Both the position numbers and the translations under genes were made by a program. From Cavia porcellus (lineage: Eukaryota > Chordata > Mammalia > Rodentia > Caviidae), in the NCBI RefSeq assembly GCF_034190915.1, contig NW_026947485.1:51133019-51197018 (forward strand): DNA of 64,000 nt, given 5' to 3'. The notes beneath the pieces are model-generated. The model made no database searches, had not been told where the DNA came from, and was given only the letters and a program-made list of their open reading frames with translations. Numbering within the stretch: position 1 is the stretch's first letter; every line of letters begins with the position of its first letter. Shown here piece after piece: positions 1-64,000 of this stretch.

Positions 1-650
1 CCAGACAGACTCCAGCCCCTTCTGGTGTGTCGGCTGGCAAACAAGAAGTACCAACACCCACCCTGCCCCTGCGCTGTAAGTGACAGGCTTATCTGGAGAC
101 ACACAGGCTGTGATGATTGCTATGGAGGTGAGATTCAGTTGGATGCCTGTGGTGCTTTAGTGTTTCACTAACATTACAGGTCTATGGCCAGTGGTCTGAT
201 CATAGTTTCAGAGGACAGCAGTAGGCAGCGTGACATCTAGAAGGCTCTCTTTCTGAGAGGAGCAGCCATTGTTGATTCCCTGTGATCTTGTTTTGAAAGT
301 CCTATATCGTTTCCACTGTTTTGTTGGGTTGGGTTTTATTTTGTTTTGCTTTGTTTGATTATGTCAAATCCAATGGCAGGAGCAGCTGTTTTTATGGTAG
401 CAATTTTGGATTTACTATAGGCTTGTTTTGAAGTCCTTTATTGCATTCATTATTTTGTTTTTATTGTTTCTATTCTATTCTGTTTGATTTTTATTATGTC
501 CAAAGATATCTGCAGCTATTTTGAAGACATCAAAAGGCATTATGGTAGCTACTGTTGATTTCATAAGATTTTGAAGTCCTGTATTATTTACACTGGTTTG
601 TTTTGATTGGTTTTGTACTCTTTAAAATAAAAAAAAAAAAGAAAAGAAAA
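1..650 (+). mobile_element. Composite L1-related retroelement, copy A (5' end outside window)
   Basis: The sequence aligns by eye along its whole length with copy B at 38,744-39,547. It shares the motif 'caagaagtaccaacacc', a linker around 90-240, and then an AT-rich, T/G-biased module made of similar units starting at 265, 400 and 548 (135 bp, 148 bp and a shorter last unit). Each unit begins like 'gccattgttgatt' and contains 'ttttgaagtcct'. The element ends in an A-rich tail at about 624-650, which argues for a non-LTR, target-primed mechanism. The 5' part lies outside the window, so neither the head nor a target-site duplication can be assessed. It has no coding capacity. Family membership is seen in the sequence; the origin of the family is inferred. 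Confidence 0.75.
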
Positions 651-14923: not shown

Positions 14924-15018
14924 CTGTTAAAAACAAGTTATTGGCACGTTGATCTCAGGTCTCAGCTGGTAAACCCAAAGATACCTGGATCAACGCGCCA
15001 ATAACTTGTTTTTAACAG
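14924..15018. repeat. Long near-perfect hairpin (37/36-bp arms, 22-nt loop)
   Basis: The left arm at 14,924-14,960 is the reverse complement of the right arm at 14,983-15,018, except for one A/C mismatch and one single-base bulge. The outer 24 bp, from 'ctgttaaaaacaag' inwards, pair without interruption. The loop is 14,961-14,982. The hairpin abuts the 5' side of the GAS8 retrocopy. It matches no MITE or known miRNA that I can recall. It may be a fold-back scar of the retrocopy insertion. Confidence 0.9.
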
Positions 15019-16088
15019 AGGTGTGGGCTTGCTGCAGGGACGTGAGCAGGGTGCATCCTGCGAATCCAGAAGGACTGGCCTGGGTGTCCAGGAGCGCCAA
15101 GGAAGTCACCAAGATGCGAGAGGGGCAAGTTCGAGAAACTGAGGCCAAGTATAAAAAAGATGATGAAGGTGCCTAGCTTGATCCGCGAAGGAAGACTGAC
15201 ATCCATGAGAAAAAACGACCAGATCAGCAGCACACTGATGCAGCGCCACCGAGAGGCCTCCAATGATGTCGAGAACCGCTACAGCGACATTTCGCTCAAC
15301 AAACGGCCCTCATCAGCTCCCTCAGGAACAAAGGAGGACGCGTACCTGCAGAACAGAGCCAGGCAGGGCCTCTCCAGAAGGCCCGAGATGGCCCATACGC
15401 AAAGGAAGCTCGGGAACAATGAAAGGGAAAATCGTATGCTGGTGGGCACGACAGAACATTTAAAGGTTACCGAGAAGGAGCTGAAGGACCTGCAGTGGGA
15501 GCAGGAGGTGCCGGAGGAGCACTTCAGCAAGGCGAACCGAGCAGGATGAACTGCGCCCCCCGAGGTTCCTGGCGGCTGTCAGGGACCTGTACTGTGGAGG
15601 AAGGTCGGTTTGGGGAAGCTGCTGCGGGAGCGCTGGCCCTGAGCGCTGCGGTGGGGAAGGGGAAGTGCAGCGCAGGGAGGTCCTGGCAGCCTCCAACCGG
15701 GACCCTGTAGAGTGTCTCACAAGGTGTTTTGGCATCCAAGAACATCACCATCAAGGACCTACAGTGTGAGATGGCCTGGTCTGCAAGGGCCTCAACCAAC
15801 GACCTGCTGGGCCCATCAGGCAAATCTGCTGGCCTTAGGACCCCTTCTGATGGGGTAGATATCAGGCAAATCTGCTGGCCTTGAGGACCCCTTCTGATGG
15901 GGTAGATGCTGGGCCAGGGCCCCGCAGGACCTGTTAAGACACCAAAAAAGCCTCCAAGCCTGCCTAGCATCACTGTCCAACTGATAACCCTTTTACACCA
16001 AGGCTGCAAGTTTTTGTTTTTCAGGGTTAATCATCAGCAAGTAAAGTTTTCCATGGTTTGCTAAAATCAATCAATCAATAAATAAATG
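15019..16088 (+). pseudogene. GAS8: Processed pseudogene of GAS8 / DRC4, 5'-truncated
   Basis: GAS8 (DRC4) is a coiled-coil subunit of the nexin-dynein regulatory complex of motile cilia. Several conserved stretches are recognisable in different frames: a QVRETEAKY-like stretch near 15,125-15,155, ISSTLMQRH near 15,225, LKVTEKELKDLQWEQEV at 15,460-15,510, EVLAASNRDP near 15,677, KNITIKDLQ at 15,738 and a GQGPAGPV-like end near 15,912. They follow the order of the parent protein without introns, as in an mRNA copy. The frame is broken by shifts, stops and deletions. A 46/47-bp tandem duplication at 15,815-15,907 repeats the segment matching KLLAFGIPLDNV. The 5' part of the coding sequence is missing; 15,019-15,094 I could not align. 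The 3' end is an impure A-rich tail at 16,064-16,088. GC content is well above that of the flanks. It cannot encode a functional protein. The identification rests on remembered GAS8 motifs; the assignment is fairly secure, the exact ends are not. Confidence 0.82.
15815..15907 (+). repeat. 46/47-bp tandem duplication inside the GAS8 pseudogene
   Basis: Two adjacent copies (15,815-15,860 and 15,861-15,907) differ only by one inserted G ('ccttaggacc' against 'ccttgaggacc'). This near-identity shows the duplication is recent relative to the decay of the pseudogene. Confidence 0.95.
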
Positions 16089-31879: not shown

Positions 31880-32900
31880 TCTCAAGATCGACTGGACACA
31901 GAGGATGTATATATCGAAACCCAACAAATCCTGTAGAAAGAGGAGAAACTGATTTGCAACAACCCAGTACAGACTGCCAAAATATATGAAGCAAAAAATA
32001 ATAAAATGAAAGGAAGAAATTCAGTGATACAAAATAGCTGCAGACGAATATTGTCATCTCACAAATGGATAAAACAATGAAGTAGAAGGTAAGTAAAGAA
32101 ATAGGTGACAGCATAATAAAGCAACTTGGTTTAACAGATATATACAGAACATTTACTTAGCAACAGCATACATTCTTCTCAGTGGCACCTGGGACATTTT
32201 TCAGGTTGAATAATATATTAGGCTACAAATTAAGTCTCAATAGAGACTTAATGTGGAGTTAAATATCATGCTAAGTTCTCTAATTGCTACAGATGAAGTT
32301 AAAAATCAACAACAGCATTAAAATTGAAGAATATACAACATTGTGGAAATTAAGCAACAAATACTTATAAAGGCCAATGGATCAAAAATTAAACTACAAA
32401 GATTTTAAAACACACTTAGAAATGATTGTAACTAAAAATATAGCACACCAAAATTTATGGGATTTCATATCATAAGTGAAATAAATCAGACTCCCCTGTG
32501 TAAACACTGTATGGTCTCTTTAGTGTAAGAAACTGCAAGAGTAAATAATATCCAAAATATATAAAAAATATTGTGAAAAGAGAAGAAACTGCTCAAAAGG
32601 AAAGAACAACTGGGATGGGTGAAAGCAGAAAAGAAGAAAGGAAAAAAAGTATATACATATATATATAATATATATATAGTATATATATATATTGTATATA
32701 TGGTAGCTAAGATAATTATACTACTAATTTCTATTAGTTCATTGAAAAGAAAGGTTTGTGCTTATATTATTTGATCAATTTTTCATGTCTATAAAATAAT
32801 CTGAGCAACTGCTCTGAAGATAACAATTTGCAATATATTAACCATTGTTAATCTCTTAAGAAAAGAATTTTTGGAATTAAAATATTTTTAATAAAAAAAT
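31880..32900 (+). mobile_element. L1 with interior deletion: endonuclease region joined to 3' end (family member F)
   Basis: 32,100-32,460 follows the end of the L1 ORF2 endonuclease region: 'aacagatatatacagaacat', 'catacattcttctcagtggc', 'aagtctcaatag', and 'accaaaatttatgggat' at about 32,449. The next bases belong to the extreme 3' end of ORF2 ('gtgaaataaatcagactccc', 'actgtatggtctc'), so the reverse transcriptase region is absent. An A/G-rich segment, an AT-dinucleotide patch (32,649-32,701) and a segment to 32,900 follow. That last segment resembles G at 58,785-59,030 and, in 'accattgttaatctc', the 3' module of the composite family. This suggests the module derives from this L1 3' UTR. 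Confidence 0.65.
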
Positions 32901-38731: not shown

Positions 38732-38743
38732 ACAGCTAATATG
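38732..38743 (+). repeat. Left target-site duplication of composite copy B
   Basis: The 12 bases 'acagctaatatg' recur exactly at 39,548-39,559, immediately after the A-rich tail of the element. They define the insertion boundaries of copy B. Confidence 0.9.
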
Positions 38744-39547
38744 GGCTGCCGGACTGGGAACAGTTAGACCCAAGCCTTGCCCCTTGAGTCAGTACCATTG
38801 TGGACTGGCAGAAAGAGAAGAAGGCCACACCAGCAAACAAGCACAGTCTGGAAACTAGCATCGTGCACAGGCCACCTCTGGACTGGTAAAAGCCCGACCT
38901 CAGTCCCTTCCAGCAAGTGGGCTGGCAATACAAGAAGTACCAACACCTCCCCCATCACCCTCCTGTAAGCAACCAGCTCATCCAGAGAAACACAGGCTGT
39001 GATGATAGCTATGGAGGTGAAATGCAATTGGATGCCTGTGGTGCTTTGGTGTTTTACTAGCATTGCAGGTCAAAGGCCAGTGGTCTGATCTTAGGTTCAG
39101 AGGATAGTGGTACATAGTGTGACATCTAGGGCCATCTTCTGAGAGTTGCAGCCATTGTTGATTCCCTATGGTCTTATTTTGAGGTCCTATATCATTTCAA
39201 TTGTTTTGCTGGGATGAGTTTTATTCTCTCGTTTTATTTGATTATGTTGAGACCCGTAGCAGGAACAACTATTTCAAAGATACCAAGATATATTATGGTA
39301 GCAATTTTGAATTTACTATTTGTATGTTTTGAAATCTTTTATTGTATTCATTGTTTTGTTTTTATTGTTTCTGTTTTATTCTGTTTTGTTTGATTTTTTA
39401 TATCCAAAGGGTATCTGCAGCTATTTTGAAGACATCAAAAAGCATTATGCTAACTATGGTTGATTTCACGTTTTTGAAGTCCTGTATCTCTTACACTGGT
39501 TTGTTTTGACTTGTTTATTGTTTTATTATCTTTAAAATTAAGAAAAA
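38744..39547 (+). mobile_element. Composite L1-related retroelement, copy B (complete insertion with TSDs)
   Basis: The 804-bp element is bounded by a perfect 12-bp target-site duplication. The 5' part is GC-rich and contains a roughly 78-bp repeated unit ('tggactgg' at 38,801 and 38,879). The linker is at 38,960-39,150. The AT-rich 3' module has units starting at about 39,151, 39,301 and 39,450. The end is 'ctttaaaattaagaaaaaa'. It aligns with copy A over its 3' 650 bp. The features are those of L1-type target-primed insertion. It has no coding capacity. The 5' end differs from that of copy D, so B is either 5'-truncated or a different subfamily. Confidence 0.85.
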
Positions 39548-39559
39548 ACAGCTAATATG
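39548..39559 (+). repeat. Right target-site duplication of composite copy B
   Basis: A 12-bp exact copy of 38,732-38,743, placed directly after the A-rich tail. Confidence 0.9.
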
Positions 39560-47592: not shown

Positions 47593-48149
47593 AGCCCAAC
47601 AGTCAATCTTTCCTTGGATATGTATTCTTTAATGTCTATCAATAAAGTTTTATATACTCTTTTATTGGATTTATCCCTTGAGATTTTATTATTCTACTTT
47701 TTCATATGCTTTCATATTTTGTTACCTTTATACCTAAGAACTTTATGTTATTAAATGTTTTAAGTGTAAAGGATGTCATTTTAATTTCTAATTTTTCATT
47801 ATAAAATACCAGATTATAAAAGTATGGCTGATATTTATGTATTAATCTTGAACTGTACAAGCTTGCTTAGCTCCTTAATTATTTCTAGTGACTTCTTTGT
47901 AGAGTCTTTGGGATTTTTTTAATCTAGGACCTCTGACACACTGAATAAGAATGATGAGATTTTGTTCCTGATCTTAGAGGGAGGTGTTTAGTTCTTCAGC
48001 ATTAAATATAGTGCTATCAATGGTTAGTCTTTTTGTTTGTTTGTTGAAGATAACTTTACCAGGCTGAGGAAATTTCCTTCTACTCTTAGATTGTTGAGAG
48101 TTATTTCTATCATAAATAGAGAATTTTGCCAATATTTTATGCACTCTTT

Positions 48150-48322
48150 TTATTCTGGGGTGGAGAATGAACCCAGAACCACAACACTGAGCAACAATCC
48201 ATTCCTTTTTTGTTTTTTATTTTGAGGCAGAGTCTTCCCTAGGCTGGGCTTCAATTTGTGATCATCCTAACCTCAGCCTTCCAGAGTGTTGGCATTATAG
48301 CTGTATACCACCAAGCCTGGCT
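48150..48322 (-). mobile_element. B1 SINE next to an ID-like fragment
   Basis: 48,205-48,322 is antisense B1 ('gaggcagagtcttccctagg', 'cagcctt', 'gcattatagctgtataccac', 'caagcctggc'). Just before it, about 48,155-48,204, is a deleted antisense ID-like piece ('gagaatgaacccagaacc', 'cactgagcaacaatcc'). Both interrupt the L1. Confidence 0.75.
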
Positions 48323-48447
48323 GTTTTGTGTACCCACTATGTCATCTATTTTTAAAAATATGTGTTACACTGTGTGATTTTTAAATGTTTAGTTATCTCT
48401 GCATTTCCACAATGAATCTCATTTCTACAATATATCATTCTTTTTAT

Positions 48448-49462
48448 TTTATTTTAAAGGGAATAAGACAGAACAGTAAAATGAAACAAAACAAAACAAT
48501 AATAGGACAATAGGAAATCCACAATTGTTCCTATATTACATATAGGAATCCTCTAAATAGTTACCCAGACTGCTGGCCCCAGGCCTGCAACTTCAATCAA
48601 ACAACATAATGTAAGTTTACTTCCCTATTTCAGTTACTTCAGTTAGTATCTCAGCCTGTGTCACATCCTGTTGCTTATGGGTGGGGGTGGCTGGATGTGG
48701 AGGAGGCTTACATGCTGTTTCTCCCCAGCCAACCCGGCTTCTTCCAGCACACAGGGAGGACGCAAGGTTTCCTTGCTGCTTTCCCTAGCCGGCAGAGCCT
48801 GCACCAGTGAAGGAGGCGGTGAAGGGTGCATGGCTTCTGTGCTGCTTCTCCCCAGTGCCTGGCAGCTCCTCTGTTGATGCACGGTGGGTGGGGACTGCAT
48901 TGCTTCCTCAGTCCTTCTCCCCTGTGGCCGTAGGGCCTCCAGCAGCACTCAGCGGATGGGCCCGCACTCCTTTCTTACTGTTTCTCCTAGGCGGCCAGTA
49001 GGGCCTCCACCCAGAGCGCCAGGGCTGGGGCTGGACTGCTTCTTTGCAGCTTCTCCCCGTTGGCTGGCAGGACCTCTGCTGGGGCACAGGAGGTGGGGCT
49101 GCACTGCTACTTTGCCTGTCTCCCCAGCAGCCCCAGGACTTCCATTGGTGCACAGGGCCTGGAGGCCACACTGCTTCCCTACCAGTTCTCCCCAGAGTCT
49201 GACAGTGCCTGAGGGGCGGGGCCACACTGCTTCCTTATCAGTTCTCTCTAACAGGTCTACCAGCCCTGGGTTTTTGATTTTTGTGAAATTTCTGAACTAT
49301 CTCTCTCCATGGACTTCAAGTCTCAATTCAGATCCTTCCTGTGGGACCCCTTCTCTCCTCCTCTTCCTCACGTTGCTTTATCCCAGGGTCTAGATACCAA
49401 AAGTTGGAGAGGCTGTTTCTTGGTTGCTCCCTGCTCTGCCATTTTCCCAGAAGCCCATACAG
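48448..49462 (-). mobile_element. Composite L1-related retroelement, copy D (VNTR-bearing, complete insertion)
   Basis: The 1,015-bp element lies inside an L1 and is flanked by a perfect 10-bp duplication 'ttctttttat' (48,438-48,447 and 49,463-49,472). On the minus strand it starts with an L1-5'UTR-like head containing 'aaaatggcagagcaggga'. A GC-rich VNTR of nine units follows (49,253-48,715), then a linker with 'gcaggcctggggccagcag', one AT-rich unit with 'tgtggatttcctattgtcct', and an end 'ccctttaaaataaaataaa'. Frames of up to 169 codons cross the VNTR in several registers on both strands and are not genes. The linker and 3' unit match copy C; the head is not present in B or C. Confidence 0.85.
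48715..49253 (-). repeat. GC-rich VNTR of nine ~56-69 bp units
   Basis: Units start on the plus strand at 48,715, 48,776, 48,842, 48,909, 48,978, 49,047, 49,115, 49,182 and 49,238. Each starts like 'ctgcttctccccag' and continues with a 'ggcagggcct'-like segment and a 'gggctgcactgcttc'-like end. Units are clearly related but diverged. Composition contrasts sharply with the AT-rich L1 around it. Confidence 0.92.
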
Positions 49463-49800
49463 TTCTTTTTATATATTTTTGGGCTTACTAAACTTATAGT
49501 GTTGTCCATGCAACATTATTGCTGTGTAGTATCCTTCCTTGTGATGTCTGGATTATGGATTAGAATAATACAAGATCATAGATGAGATAGGAATCATAGA
49601 CAAACTGTTCATTTTCTTAAATTTTCTCAAAGAATATGGGTAGAATTGATATTCTTTCTTAAATGGTTTGTACAATTTAATGGCAAAGTCTTTGGAGCCT
49701 TGAATTTTCTTTGTACCAAGTTTTAAACTATAAATTTTATTTCCTTAGTACATATAGGCCTGTCTGTCTGGCTTATTTTTCCTTTATCTGGATTTCCTCT

Positions 49801-52411
49801 ATTTAACACCTCAGCTTTCTCTCTCTCCTCCTTCACAAGGTTAAATGCTAAGAAATCTTGAAGATCAACTCATTTCTCATATGTCCCAAGCTTTCCCTGA
49901 AATAGTCTTTTCCTTAAAAATTTTCTCCCTCATGTCACAATGCCCTGGGCATCACCATTATTTATTGTATTACACTATATTAGAAATTTCTCTTTATGTA
50001 TTTTTCCCTCAATAGACATATAGTTGAAGATACAAATCATGTGTTTCATAATGTAAGAATTTATATCACATTTATAAAATTAACATGTATGTATTTGTGT
50101 GTACATTACACACACACATATACATTTATATACATATATATGCATATTTTACATGTATACTCATGTGTAAAAGTCAGTGTATTCTTATTAGTTCTTTAAA
50201 ATAGAAATTGTCAGCATCATTATTGAAATCACTTTCTATGCCTAACCTTATGAGATTTAGAAAACATTTGGAAACTTTTGAGCCCATGAGGAACTTTTTG
50301 ATTTCTGTCTTAACACTTGTGAGAAAATCCAAGTTGACAGCAAAGCCAGTTTACATTTTCTAGGTCTTAACTGAAAGGGAAATATATTGAGAGTTATTAA
50401 GCCTGTTGTGATTATTGGGCTACAGTATATATTCAAGCACAAATGTCTAATTTACTTTCATATTTATTTGGTCTTTTTTAGCGTTTTCCTTTTTGAAAAA
50501 TAGGCTACATTACCAGGCACATTTGAACACCAGCATTAGTCATGGACGTGGTGATTCATCAGGTTGGCTTATAAAGTGAAAGCAGCCTTGCCCTTCCTAA
50601 ACGTCGACGGTTGGCAACTCTTTTCCCCCCTCTGAATCAGGCGTGTATTTGAGTAATCAAGAAAGAACTGTCTGTCTTGTGACCTTAGAGGCTGGTGAAA
50701 GGGAACAACTGAGTGTTTTTGGCATAGGAAAGTTAGCAGAACAATGCAAATCTGTAGACCAGAGGGCCTCTCTGCTTGGCTGCTTCCTCTGGGCAGACTT
50801 GAATGTCACAGGATCTGCTAATTGCCAGCAGGATTTTTCATACTTGGTGAAAAACTATTTTAATATAATCAAAATGGATTTCAGGTCTTTAAAAAAAACA
50901 TGTTTAAACTCTCTCTGTGCTCATTTTGCTAAATTCTTTACCTTTGGTTAAGATCTGCAGTCTTTCTCAATTGGGTGTTTTTTTAACCCTACTGAGATCA
51001 GAACCAGTAAGAGACAGTTTTACAACACGGACACATTGGGAGAATAACCAGACTGGGGAGTGAAGGAATGAGCCTAATGCAAATTAGGTGAGGCAATTAG
51101 ACCACACAGAGAGAATGTGGAAACCATCTCAAAGATAAGTGAGAGGGATAATAGCCAGGGAGCCCAAGAACTTTGAATGAAATGACAGATCCGAAGACAA
51201 TAAAGCCAAAAGGATCTGGCAGAGAAAAAGGATTCATTTATATTAAATTCACACATCCTGTTTGACTGTGAATCAATGAGCATTTTTAAAATACTCATTG
51301 AAGAAAGTGCAAATATTTGATTTTTAAGAATCTGTCTCTCTCTTGTTTGTCTCTGTCTCCCCCTCTCAGATTTTTTTCTCATTAAGAATATGTGGGGTGT
51401 CATTAGAAAACCAGAGAGTTGCAAACCACTACATTGAAAAACATCTGTGTAGATTCCTCTCTGCCCTATGTTTGACATCTTTCAAATCTATGCGGCTTAT
51501 CTTGAAATCTCTAAACAATCTACAACATTCACTCCTTTGCCTCAGGAACTCAGGAGAGCTGGGCTGGTTTTAGATCTTTGACTCATGTTCCAAAGTCATC
51601 TTATTTCAAGTACAATTTGGGGACAGTTATGTGTGCTGTTCTTGTATCTTCCTAAACGGAAATTATTTTGAAAGTAAAGTTATATATAAAATCAACTCAG
51701 GAAATGTACTTTGCAAATATGAGCATTATTAGAAGCCATGCCACAAAAAATACTTTGATTGTTTTTACCAGAGAATAGTATTAACTAAAACTTATGGGAA
51801 GACATTCTTTTGGATTAAGCTTCTGCTCTAGGCCCAACAGATTAGACCTAACCAGAAAACAGAATGGATTGCTTTGGCTAGGTGCAGTGAAATCAAACTA
51901 GTTCAAAGAGGTTCGGTTTTCCAAACAAAAACAAACAAAAATCCAGGAGATCCATACCAATTAATCAGAAAAGTCCTAGACAGCATCCAGCATGATAAGA
52001 AAAGTCCCCCCTGCTTTCAGGAAAGTACTTGGAAATGATCAGTCTGCTTTTTGTTATTTATTGCCTTTTTTCTACCCAGAAAGCTCCTCTCCCCTGCTCG
52101 GTTCATTGGAATTTATTTCTATTTCATAGATAGATTTATGCTTGAATTGCTAATAAGAAACAAATAGATCACTCAATGAATTTGTTGAATTTTGTCTTTT
52201 GATAATCATTACAATAGAATAATGATATATCTCTACAGAGAGACTTTGAGAAATGTGAAGCTCAAAATTTTAAATAATTGTATTTAAGAGTGTTACCTAA
52301 GTGGTTACCTAAAGGATAATTCCCTAAATACAATAAAACATGAAAAGCTAATTTGAAGGGAGCAAGAGTTGATATCACAAAAGGAGACAAACAAAAATCA
52401 AGTTTCTTTCC
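49801..52411. other. Non-coding stretch with a candidate regulatory block
   Basis: 49,800-50,060 has an L2-like flavour ('caatgccctgggcatc', 'tattgtattacactatatta') but too little for a call. A TATG/ACAC-type simple repeat is at 50,083-50,165. 50,520-50,960 is repeat-free and mixed in composition, with a CpG cluster at 'aaacgtcgacgg' near 50,600 and an octamer ATGCAAAT at 50,744-50,751. No exon was recognised. Confidence 0.4.
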
Positions 52412-58784: not shown

Positions 58785-59030
58785 AATATGTATATGATAG
58801 TTAAGGTAGTTATACTATTAATTACTAATTTATATTAGTTCACTGAAAAGAAAGGTTTGTGTTTATACTGTTTAATGAACTTTTCATGCCTGTATTTATA
58901 ACATGAAAATAACAGTTTCCTACATGTTAACTGTTGTTGCTCTCTACTATCTTTTGAAATTTTCTATCAGTGTTTTTACTGTTTCTTCTCTTTAAAATAA
59001 AATTTAAAAAATAATTTAAAAATAAAAACA
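58785..59030 (+). mobile_element. L1 3'-UTR segment G, related to the composite 3' module
   Basis: It aligns with F at 32,690-32,900 through 'tagttcactgaaaagaaagg' and 'tttgtgtttatactgtttaa'. Its last 80 bp ('gttaactgttgttgctctct', 'actatcttttgaaat', 'tttaaaataaaattt') match the final unit of copies A-C. It ends in an A-rich run. No ORF2 sequence precedes it, so this is a strongly 5'-truncated insertion. Confidence 0.6.
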
Positions 59031-61460: not shown

Positions 61461-62767
61461 TTTCTAGTTCTGTAGATACACTAGAGATTATTTGCCTAAT
61501 TTTCATCTCTCCCTCTGAACTTCTCAATAATGTGTCAGACTTCTATCAGCTTTGGTGTCTGCCACATCTAGACCATTAGTCCTAATTTTTTCCCTTCCTT
61601 CTTGTCTGCCATCCTCGGCTTCCAAATGTACTATTCTGTTTGCAAATTTTATCTTTCTCATGAATTCACCAACTCTCAACTGAAATTCATCAATCTGCAA
61701 GAAAGAGTAATTCAGTTTCTCCATTGGGCTCTTGATTTGTCCATTATATTCTTATTCCTCAGCGACCCAGAAGATAATTCCCATATGAACTATAACATTT
61801 GTTCTTTTCCTCTTCAATGAGAGCCATTATCAAATTTTTATATCTATCCTTTGTCTTATCTCTATTTTTAGTTTTTAATTTTTACTGCCGGTCATCTCAA
61901 CCTTGGCACAATCAATATTTTTGGGCTGGATGATTAACAGGATCCCTACCAGACACCAGCAACATCTTGAATTGCCAAAACCAAAGCTTTGCAGATATTG
62001 CCAAAACTCGCTTGACTAAACCACCCCCAGAGCCACTGTGCTAGAACATTGGTTTATTTCCTTTGGTCCAAAAAAAAATTATGTGACTCCTCGCTTAGTC
62101 TTACTTCCTTTAGACATTTCCTATTCATTTTCAATCACTCAAAATATTTTTATTAAAGATGCCCTATTTACTGTGAGATTTCATGGGAAGCATGACTGTA
62201 AGCCCCTGCTTTTGAGGAGTAATAGAGTGTGAATATTGGCAGAAGGGTTCACACGAGTAGTACAGTCTTACTAGAGTCTCTTGTATTAACCATGTCACTT
62301 AACTCCTCAGAATTTTTCACTGTTAGTACATCTCCTCAAATCTTATTTTGTAATTCTCAGTGTGCCCTCCATAGACTGAACTCAGCATTAACATTCCAGA
62401 CTAATGCCCCAAACTTTTCCTAGCACATGCTTTATCAACCAGTGTGTTTATTCATTGCTCCTATAAATTTGTGCATGGTCTTCCATCTCCATTCCACTTT
62501 TTTTTTACCTGACTTTGTTGACTCAAGTCAAAACCTCTCCTTCTTTTCTTTCTCTCTGTGGAAACTGTTACTATTTGTTCATTCTGTTAGCATTAACTGG
62601 TCACCATACTGACTTGGCACTCAGCTCAACTTTCTTACACTCTGTATTAGTGATTTATATACAGATATCATCCCAACCAATCATAAATGTAGTTAGACTA
62701 AAATATGTTTCCATGTGCCCCATAATAGTTACCGCGTTAGAAGTAGTATAAGCTCTGTGAGGACTTT
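61461..62767. other. C/T-rich non-coding stretch
   Basis: The pyrimidine-rich plus strand at 61,461-62,750 may be further old LINE sequence but lacks diagnostic motifs. Several frames of 61-78 codons are by-products of this composition. Confidence 0.4.
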
Positions 62768-63585
62768 AAAAAAATTTAGAGAGAATAAAGCCTAACAAAA
62801 TAAAGCAGAATAAAGCCAATCAAAATAAGACAGGAGAGGTGACACAGAATTGCAAAACAAGATAATAAGAAATCAACAATGGTTACCATAATGCCTCTTG
62901 TGGTCTTCAAAATAGCTGCCCATATCTTCAGACATAGTAAAATCAAACAAAACAGAAATAGAATAGAACCAACGAAAACAAAACAATGAATGCAATACAA
63001 GACTTCAAAACAAGATAATAGGAAATCCAAAGTGGCTACCGTAATATACCTTGTTATCTTTGAAATAGCTGCCCATGTCATCAAATACAACAAAATTAAA
63101 CAAGATAAAACAGAATGAAACCCACAAACAAACCAATGAGAATGATACAGGACTTTGAGACAAGATAATAGGGAATTAACAATGGCCACCACCCTTAGCA
63201 GGAGATCTCCCATATATACTACCCTGTGTATTGTTATCCTCTGAATAGTTAAACAAACTGCCAGTTCTAGGCCTGCAAAGTCAGTGAAACACCAAGCATT
63301 AAACTGTATTTTACATCATTAGCTATTATCACAGTCTGTGTTTCTCTGGATCAGCCTGTTGCTTATGGTGAGTGAAGGGGGCTCTTGTCTCCCTGCCCGT
63401 GCACCAGCAGGGGCTGATGACTGTCTCTCTCTCAGCCATCCTGCACATGACACTGACTTGCAGGAGGTCTTAGCTTTTTGACCTCTTGTTCTCCTCCCCC
63501 TCAGTCTGCAAATGGTGCCAACTCACAGGAGGTCTTAGCTTCTTGTTGACTTCTTGTTCTCCTCCTCCTAAGTTCATGAATACCC
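62768..63585 (-). mobile_element. Composite L1-related retroelement, copy C
   Basis: On the minus strand: a GC-rich tandem repeat with a 65-bp period ('caggaggtcttagct' on the plus strand at 63,461 and 63,526), then a linker with 'cagagaaacacagactgtga' shared with A and B. An AT-rich module of units follows at 63,186-63,037 (150 bp), 63,036-62,884 (153 bp) and 62,883-62,768 (116 bp). A possible 8-bp duplication 'aggacttt' lies at 62,760-62,767 and 63,586-63,593. The pure A-tail is lost. The 145-codon frame at 62,776-63,213 is a translation of the repeat units and not a gene. Confidence 0.75.
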
Positions 63586-64000
63586 AGGACTTTTATATTC
63601 TTGTTTGTAAAAATGACTCAGGTATATCAGCAGATATTCTATGTCAATATCACATATTTTAAGAGATTTAGTAGCATTTGTAGTTTTAATTTTGTAGTAC
63701 TGAAATAGGGAGAGGGAACACAGGGGAAAGAAAATCCCACCCTAGGACTGGGAAATATTTTGAGTCTGACATCACAATTAATATGAAGGAAAAGTGACAT
63801 TTCCCTAAAACGTGAATTCAAAATTCCACAGGCTTTTGCCAGGCAAGGAAGACTTTGACTCAGCAGCAACAGTTGTGTTAGAGCCAAACCTTATATTCAA
63901 AGAGATAACAGTTACACAGAGCCTAAATATATAAGTTAGCAAAGGAGAGTATTTCCTGGCTTTTTTGTAGTGTTAGACCCAACTAAGCTGCATCCTCTTC
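63586..64000. other. Unique sequence, no gene seen
   Basis: Two AP-1-type TGACTCA motifs lie at 63,614-63,620 and 63,856-63,862, with a CRE-like 'tgacatcac' between them near 63,767. Nothing else shows that it is regulatory. Confidence 0.35.

What the first reader, a model, noticed from the sequence alone, without database searches (positions are those of the whole stretch)
48448..49462. SVA-like composite retroelement (copy D): L1-5'UTR-like head, GC-rich VNTR, AT-rich 3' module, A-tail, TSD
Seen: a 1,015-bp insertion inside a minus-strand L1, with a perfect 10-bp target-site duplication. Read on its own strand it has an L1-like head, nine GC-rich tandem units, a linker, an AT-rich unit and an A-rich tail. 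Known: hominoid SVA elements have a comparable head / VNTR / 3' module / tail plan and are moved by L1. Inferred: this may be an independently assembled, L1-mobilised composite family in rodents. The main alternative is an L1 subfamily that lost both ORFs. I do not recall a described rodent family with this plan.
Basis: partly seen in the sequence, partly recalled or inferred. Interest (0 to 1): 0.85.

Follow-up and report, generated by a model that had tools for sequence, protein, structure and literature searches.

The report
Old gene-less composite retroposon inside L1
A roughly 1,000-base copied-and-pasted DNA element with no detectable genes, made of a head, a GC-rich tandem repeat, a linker, an AT-rich block and a short A-rich tail, sits inside an older L1 element and shares its linker with three other insertions nearby; its plan resembles the SVA elements of apes, but whether it is a separate family or the ends of an ordinary L1 could not be settled here.

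Summary
D (48448-49462, minus strand) has a perfect 10-bp target-site duplication, nine GC-rich units of period ~68, a linker, an AT-rich module and a short A-rich tail. It interrupts an old L1 ORF2: a frame-shift-tolerant alignment of the joined flanks to ORF2p crosses the joint, score 131 against at most 50 in 60 shuffles. Three related insertions lie in the window (A 1-640, cut by the edge; C 38744-39547; B 62768-63585); a profile of their linkers finds D at E=2e-9. B and C have their own target-site duplications. No ORF2 signal was found in any of the four copies; ORF1 is inconclusive. So the linker and 3' module belong to an old (pairwise distances 0.2-0.6) L1-type retroposon family. Against the reading: D's VNTR is not demonstrably homologous to the GC-rich 5' parts of A, B or C; the head occurs in D only and its L1-likeness rests on one short recalled motif. 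It works like SVA/LAVA in plan but is no member (no CT hexamer, other unit length). The rival, UTRs of an ordinary L1, stays open: no mammalian genome, Dfam or Repbase could be searched. Catalogue novelty is untested.

The parts
48438..48447 (.). target-site duplication of D, copy at the element's 3' side
   Evidence: sequence; family D4
49463..49472 (.). target-site duplication of D, copy at the element's 5' side
49251..49462 (-). D head (D 1-212), GC 48%, with a YY1-like ANATGGC core at D 19 (motif recalled); putative L1-5'UTR-like start
   Evidence: L1-likeness weak
48679..49250 (-). D GC-rich VNTR (D 213-784), nine units of 48-70 bp, period ~68, GC 62%, CpG 12 observed vs 55.7 expected
48545..48678 (-). 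D linker (~134 bp), shared with A, B and C
   Evidence: nhmmer with a profile of A, B, C only: 48677-48548, E=2e-9
48456..48544 (-). D AT-rich module, one unit; boundary with the linker approximate
   Evidence: alignment; profile of the last units of A, B, C hits 48570-48508 at only E=0.0012
48448..48455 (-). D A-rich tail AAAATAAA, with AATAAA at the very end
49473..49911 (-). host L1 ORF2 remnant upstream of D (minus strand)
   Evidence: frame-shift-tolerant alignment of joined flanks
47613..48447 (-). host L1 ORF2 remnant downstream of D, itself holding a B1/ID-like SINE (~48150-48330, label recalled)
   Evidence: sequence
1..640 (+). copy A: GC-rich end (GC 62%), linker ~77-221, three AT-rich units, poly-A; 5' end cut by the window
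38744..39547 (+). copy C: 5' part of 222 bp (GC 56%), linker 38966-39110, three AT-rich units, A-rich tail; TSD ACAGCTAATATG at 38732-38743 and 39548-39559
62768..63585 (-). copy B: 5' part of 220 bp (GC 53%, period 65), linker 63365-63232, three AT-rich units, end not A-rich; TSD (AGGACTTT on +) at 62760-62767 and 63586-63593

Best explanation
D is a full-length or nearly full-length copy in an old family of ORF-less, non-autonomous retroposons with the plan head, ~68-bp GC-rich VNTR, linker (~135-150 bp), AT-rich module (one or three units), A-tail. Shown: the linker is shared by four insertions; a GC-richer stretch lies directly upstream of it in all four; TSDs flank the three copies with both ends visible; D interrupts an L1; no ORF2 is detectable. 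Inferred: the head carried an RNA polymerase II start (YY1-like site near +19), the RNA ended at the 3'-terminal AATAAA, and L1 proteins acting in trans nicked a T-rich strand (TTTTT/AT at D if the TSD is read as AAAAAGAA), primed on the A-tail and copied it; B and C would be 5'-truncated copies or members of a sister subfamily with another 5' part. The copies are long dead.
For: Self-comparison finds A, B, C as relatives of each other and links B and C to D; the linker profile of A, B, C finds D at E=2e-9; TSDs of 10, 12 and 8 bp, reached in 0.1%, 0.025% and 0.925% of 4,000 random placements each; ORF2p not above the maximum of 15 shuffles in 4 of 4 copies (B equals it), positive control 280 vs max 45; D lies in a host L1. 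The 5' parts upstream of the linker have GC 53-62% against 36% for the window, and B's has a period of 65 beyond 500 of 500 shuffles.
Against: D's VNTR is not demonstrably homologous to the 5' parts of the others: scores reached by 77 (B), 36 (C) and 5 (A) of 300 shuffles, and its unit profile finds nothing outside D below E 0.6. C's 5' part shows no period (89 of 500 shuffles reach it). The head is in one copy only. D's AT-rich unit alone is a weak match (E=0.0012), weaker than a place outside any copy, 32801-32874 (E=3.8e-5). ORF1p: D's 44 equals its shuffle maximum of 44 and C's 41 exceeds its maximum of 35. B lacks an A-rich tail, B and C lack AATAAA there, and B's 8-bp TSD word occurs once more inside B. 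No mammalian genome or repeat library was searched.
Confidence: 0.52

Rival explanations
1. These are the ends of an ordinary L1 subfamily: linker and AT-rich units are its 3' UTR, head and GC-rich VNTR its 5' UTR (or the GC-rich part also lies in the 3' UTR); A, B and C are 5'-truncated L1s, and D is an L1 copy that lost its ORFs by splicing or deletion.
For: L1 copies are commonly 5'-truncated near the 3' end (established knowledge); B (818 bp) and C (804 bp) fit that. D has a motif recalled from L1 5' ends at +18. AATAAA lies at the 3' end of D and A. D's VNTR and the 5' parts of A, B, C are not demonstrably the same sequence, as expected if D's is 5' UTR and theirs is not. ORF1p signal of C exceeds its 15 shuffles. 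Spliced L1 RNAs are known to retrotranspose (PMC5860796, abstract).
Against: No ORF2 signal in any of the four copies, in 1,000 bases 5' of C or in 407 bases 5' of B, though truncation explains that too. It needs a GC-richer stretch inside the L1 3' UTR for A, B and C, and a separate ORF loss for D.
Confidence: 0.34
2. It is an L1-dependent rodent retroposon already in Dfam or Repbase under a non-descriptive name (RMER1A/B/C come to mind). Not exclusive of the other readings.
For: Four copies in 64 kb suggest an abundant family, which repeat finders would catch (inference); I recall that RMER1 is classed as L1-dependent or 'Other' by RepeatMasker (memory, no call).
Against: No RMER1 sequence could be compared; the one passage seen with RMER1B says nothing of its structure.
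Confidence: 0.4
3. The four copies are parts of segmental duplications or chance similarity, not transposition.
For: All four lie in one 64-kb window; the A-C match runs 47 bases past the end of C at the lax scoring used.
Against: Separate TSDs at B, C, D, both orientations, no similarity of the 3' flanks of A and C (score 10, shuffle mean 10.0), E=2e-9 for the most distant copy.
Confidence: 0.02

Closest known systems
VNTR composite retrotransposons of hominoids (SVA, LAVA, PVA, FVA)
   Same: Non-autonomous, central GC-rich tandem repeat, distinct 3' part, TSD, L1 as mobiliser (PMC4432496, part 1 of 7 of the text read); A-tail recalled.
   Different: No CCCTCT hexamer in D; no similarity of D to the window's B1-type copies (labels recalled); unit ~68 bp against 30-50 bp; AT-rich 3' module of one or three units; old copies; host apparently not a primate (inferred).
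L1 and its spliced derivatives (SpIREs)
   Same: Possible L1-like 5' motif, 3'-terminal AATAAA in D and A, TSD, T-rich nick site at D.
   Different: SpIREs come from L1 RNAs spliced within the 5' UTR or from 5' UTR into ORF1 (PMC5860796 abstract), so ORF2 should remain (inference); none is detected here.
RMER1A/B/C of mouse (recalled)
   Same: Recalled as rodent, non-autonomous, L1-dependent.
   Different: Not compared; no sequence at hand.

Membership tests
VNTR composites (SVA/LAVA/PVA/FVA) | 5' CT-hexameric repeat | tested here: not met
   CCCTCT and AGAGGG: 0 occurrences in D
VNTR composites (SVA/LAVA/PVA/FVA) | Alu-like (7SL-derived) 5' region | tested here: inconclusive
   D matches none of the window's own B1-type copies at E<=1e-3; Alu itself was not compared
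VNTR composites (SVA/LAVA/PVA/FVA) | central VNTR of 30-50 bp GC-rich units | tested here: not met
   GC-rich tandem present in D (GC 62%) but period ~68, units 48-70 bp
VNTR composites (SVA/LAVA/PVA/FVA) | mobilised by L1 in trans | not testable with these tools
   hallmarks only: TSDs, A-rich tails in 3 of 4 copies
VNTR composites (SVA/LAVA/PVA/FVA) | hominoid host | tested here: inconclusive
   B1/ID-like SINEs read in the window; labels recalled, species not identified
L1 | ORF1 and ORF2 | tested here: inconclusive
   ORF2p not above the shuffle maximum in 4 of 4 copies; ORF1p weak: C 41 vs max 35, D 44 vs max 44, A 26 vs 36, B 31 vs 36, 15 shuffles each
L1 | L1-type 5' end | tested here: inconclusive
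   recalled motif AANATGGCNGANNAGG exact at 49430-49445; expected 0.40 per shuffled window at up to 1 mismatch; a related 21-base pattern also matches 34 bacterial contigs
L1-mobilised non-LTR retroposon (general) | target-site duplication and A-rich 3' tail | tested here: met
   TSD in 3 of 3 copies with both ends in the window; A-rich tail in A, C, D, not in B
SpIRE | rest of L1, with ORF2, kept after the splice (inferred from the abstract) | tested here: not met
   no ORF2 signal in D (score 35, 15 shuffles mean 38.9)

The most novel reading that the evidence does not exclude
A VNTR-bearing composite retroposon family arose independently outside hominoids, in an apparently rodent lineage, tens of millions of years before SVA, with a GC-rich tandem 5' part that was replaced between subfamilies (D against A-C) on a kept linker and AT-rich 3' module, and spread by using L1 in trans.
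Probability: 0.27. Interest if true: 0.62.

Novelty: new variant of a known kind. Interest (0 to 1): 0.4.

Why it matters
VNTR composites are described as specific to hominoid primates (PMC4432496, abstract; PMC7353768, start of abstract in a search listing). If an unrelated lineage built the same plan from other parts, the plan itself (GC-rich tandem between a promoter-like head and an AT-rich 3' end) is a repeatable way of being copied by L1, and the role of the VNTR becomes testable by comparison. A different GC-rich 5' part on a common 3' end would parallel, in mirror image, the hominoid composites, which share the 5' part and differ in the 3' part. If the pieces prove to be L1 UTRs, the finding is ordinary.

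Tried and rejected
Shared VNTR: in drafting I took the GC-rich parts of A, B, C and D for one homologous VNTR. The check does not bear this out (D against B, C, A reached by 77, 36 and 5 of 300 shuffles), so the argument from VNTR contiguity was withdrawn and the confidence lowered from 0.60 to 0.52, the L1 rival raised from 0.27 to 0.34, the novel case lowered from 0.30 to 0.27 and the interest from 0.42 to 0.40.

Coding function of the AT-rich module: copy B has a 179-codon stop-free frame (longest of 1,000 composition shuffles 161), but over the AT-rich part A and C carry 5-10 stops in every frame (B 1 in its best frame), it has no Pfam match and no protein hit at E<=0.01; rejected. The 115-codon frame in D's VNTR likewise has none.

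Relatives elsewhere: four degenerate patterns in viral contigs gave 0 matches each. Of two in bacterial and archaeal contigs, one gave 0 and one 34. Of those 34 loci, 29 have a D match at E<=1, 19-27 bases long; all but one row of 30 lie at the pattern; A, B and C give 9 rows at E 0.18-0.63; no L1 ORF2 at E<=1e-3. Chance. G-quadruplex motifs (runs of 3 or more, loops up to 12): none in D on either strand. One 41-residue piece of the host L1 against the PDB: no match. Rfam at gathering threshold: no match in the window.

Papers: ten searches (listings capped, two of them empty) showed no title or abstract start on a rodent VNTR composite. This is word matching in an open-licence library and does not show that none is in print. 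Dfam and Repbase were not available.

Full report
What is there. D occupies 48448-49462 and reads on the minus strand. It is flanked by TTCTTTTTAT on both sides (48438-48447, 49463-49472). Read 5' to 3' it has a 212-bp head, a 572-bp GC-rich tandem array (GC 62%), a linker of ~134 bp, an AT-rich stretch of ~89 bp and the tail AAAATAAA. The array has a real period: lags 205, 69 and 136 exceed the highest value of 300 shuffles, and it splits by hand into nine units of 48-70 bp with mean identity 0.58. CpG is strongly depleted (12 against 55.7 expected), as in an old, once methylated sequence (inference).

Where it sits. With D removed and one TSD kept, the flanks align to human L1 ORF2p residues 416-798 across the joint with score 131; with D in place the best alignment ends before D at 97; 60 shuffles gave at most 50, the plus strand 35 and the reversed sequence 50. 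Ordinary BLAST sees this only weakly (joined flanks 0.056 by tblastn, 0.010 by blastx), in my view because the L1 is old and also carries a SINE. Read with the TSD as AAAAAGAA, the nick site is TTTTT/AT, close to the L1 endonuclease preference (recalled).

It has relatives. A self-comparison of the window finds copy A (1-640, +, cut by the window edge), copy C (38744-39547, +) and copy B (62768-63585, -). C has a 12-bp and B an 8-bp TSD, reached in 0.025% and 0.925% of 4,000 random placements against 0.1% for D's 10 bp (boundaries chosen by eye first; B's word occurs once more inside B). A profile made from the linkers of A, B and C, without D, finds D at E=2e-9, and the next place in the window has E=0.42. 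Over linker and 3' module Kimura distances are 0.20 (A-C), 0.34-0.36 (B with A, C), 0.41 (D-B) and 0.56-0.59 (D with C, A). A profile of the last AT-rich unit finds three units each in A, B and C and one in D, the latter at only E=0.0012; a place outside any copy, 32801-32874, scores better (E=3.8e-5). D's kinship thus rests mainly on the linker.

The 5' parts. Upstream of the linker all four copies are GC-richer (53-62%) than the window (36%). The 5' parts of A and C, and of A and B, are related (0 of 300 shuffles reach their scores), B-C less clearly (10 of 300). B's has a period of 65 (0 of 500 shuffles), C's shows none (89 of 500). D's VNTR is not demonstrably related to them: 77, 36 and 5 of 300 shuffles reach its scores with B, C and A, and a profile of its units finds nothing outside D below E 0.6. 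Either the arrays diverged beyond recognition or D has another 5' part.

What it is not. A frame-shift-tolerant comparison of the sense strand finds no L1 ORF2 in any of the four copies (scores 34-39; B equals, none exceeds, the highest of 15 shuffles), while a known L1 stretch of the window scores 280 against at most 45. For ORF1 the result is less clean: C scores 41 against at most 35 and D 44 against at most 44, with alignments that end at ORF1p residues 55 and 28. The one stop-free frame tested in D and the one in B have no Pfam match and no protein hit at E<=0.01.

How it most likely worked. A linker with an AT-rich 3' end recurs in separate insertions with their own TSDs, without ORF2, each with a GC-richer stretch directly upstream. 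The reading I prefer is an ORF-less family copied by L1 proteins in trans, with D the only copy here that keeps a head. Its weak points are that head and VNTR are seen in D alone and that the head's L1-likeness rests on a recalled motif that a shuffled window yields 0.40 times at up to one mismatch. If linker and AT units are an L1 3' UTR and D's head and VNTR an L1 5' UTR, then A, B and C are plain truncated L1s and D an L1 without ORFs. That rival is not excluded, and the lack of VNTR homology makes it stronger than I first thought.

Comparison with what is known. VNTR composites are described as non-autonomous, L1-mobilised and specific to hominoids, sharing a CT-hexamer/Alu-like 5' region and a central VNTR, in SVA of 30-50 bp GC-rich units (PMC4432496, part 1 of 7 of the text; a passage of PMC5753468, gives 35-50 bp and humans and apes only for SVA). 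D has no CCCTCT, matches no B1-type copy of the window and has ~68-bp units. It works like them in plan; it is not one of them. SpIREs are spliced within the 5' UTR or into ORF1 (PMC5860796, abstract); D shows no ORF2. Mouse RMER1 is recalled as L1-dependent and may be the nearest catalogued kin; it could not be compared.

What could not be done. The window's own assembly did not answer in 11 attempts, no mammalian genome, Dfam or Repbase is at hand, and scans of viral and bacterial contigs gave nothing but chance. Four copies in 64 kb hint at an abundant family, which makes it likely that some catalogue holds it, at least in pieces. 'New variant of a known kind' is therefore my reading of the architecture, not a tested statement about catalogues.

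Noticed in passing
window ~15004-16030 (+): GC-rich island with a 166-codon frame matching Pfam GAS (PF13851, E 1.5e-6, below its curated cut-off), perhaps a processed pseudogene of a GAS8/DRC4-type gene (gene name and extent inferred).
   Followed up: partly
window 14926-14963 and 14980-15016: Inverted repeat, about 35 of 38 aligned columns identical, at the 5' side of that island; perhaps an inversion during its insertion.
   Followed up: partly
window 62779-63315 (-): 179-codon stop-free frame through the AT-rich units of copy B, longer than in any of 1,000 composition shuffles, but broken in A and C.
   Followed up: yes
window 32801-32874 (+): Matches the AT-rich unit profile at E=3.8e-5 outside any copy; it overlaps a stretch (32683-32856) that also resembles 58786-58945. 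A further fragment of the family or another AT-rich repeat.
   Followed up: no
window 15815-15907: Two 47-bp tandem copies, 97% matches, inside the GC-rich island.
   Followed up: no
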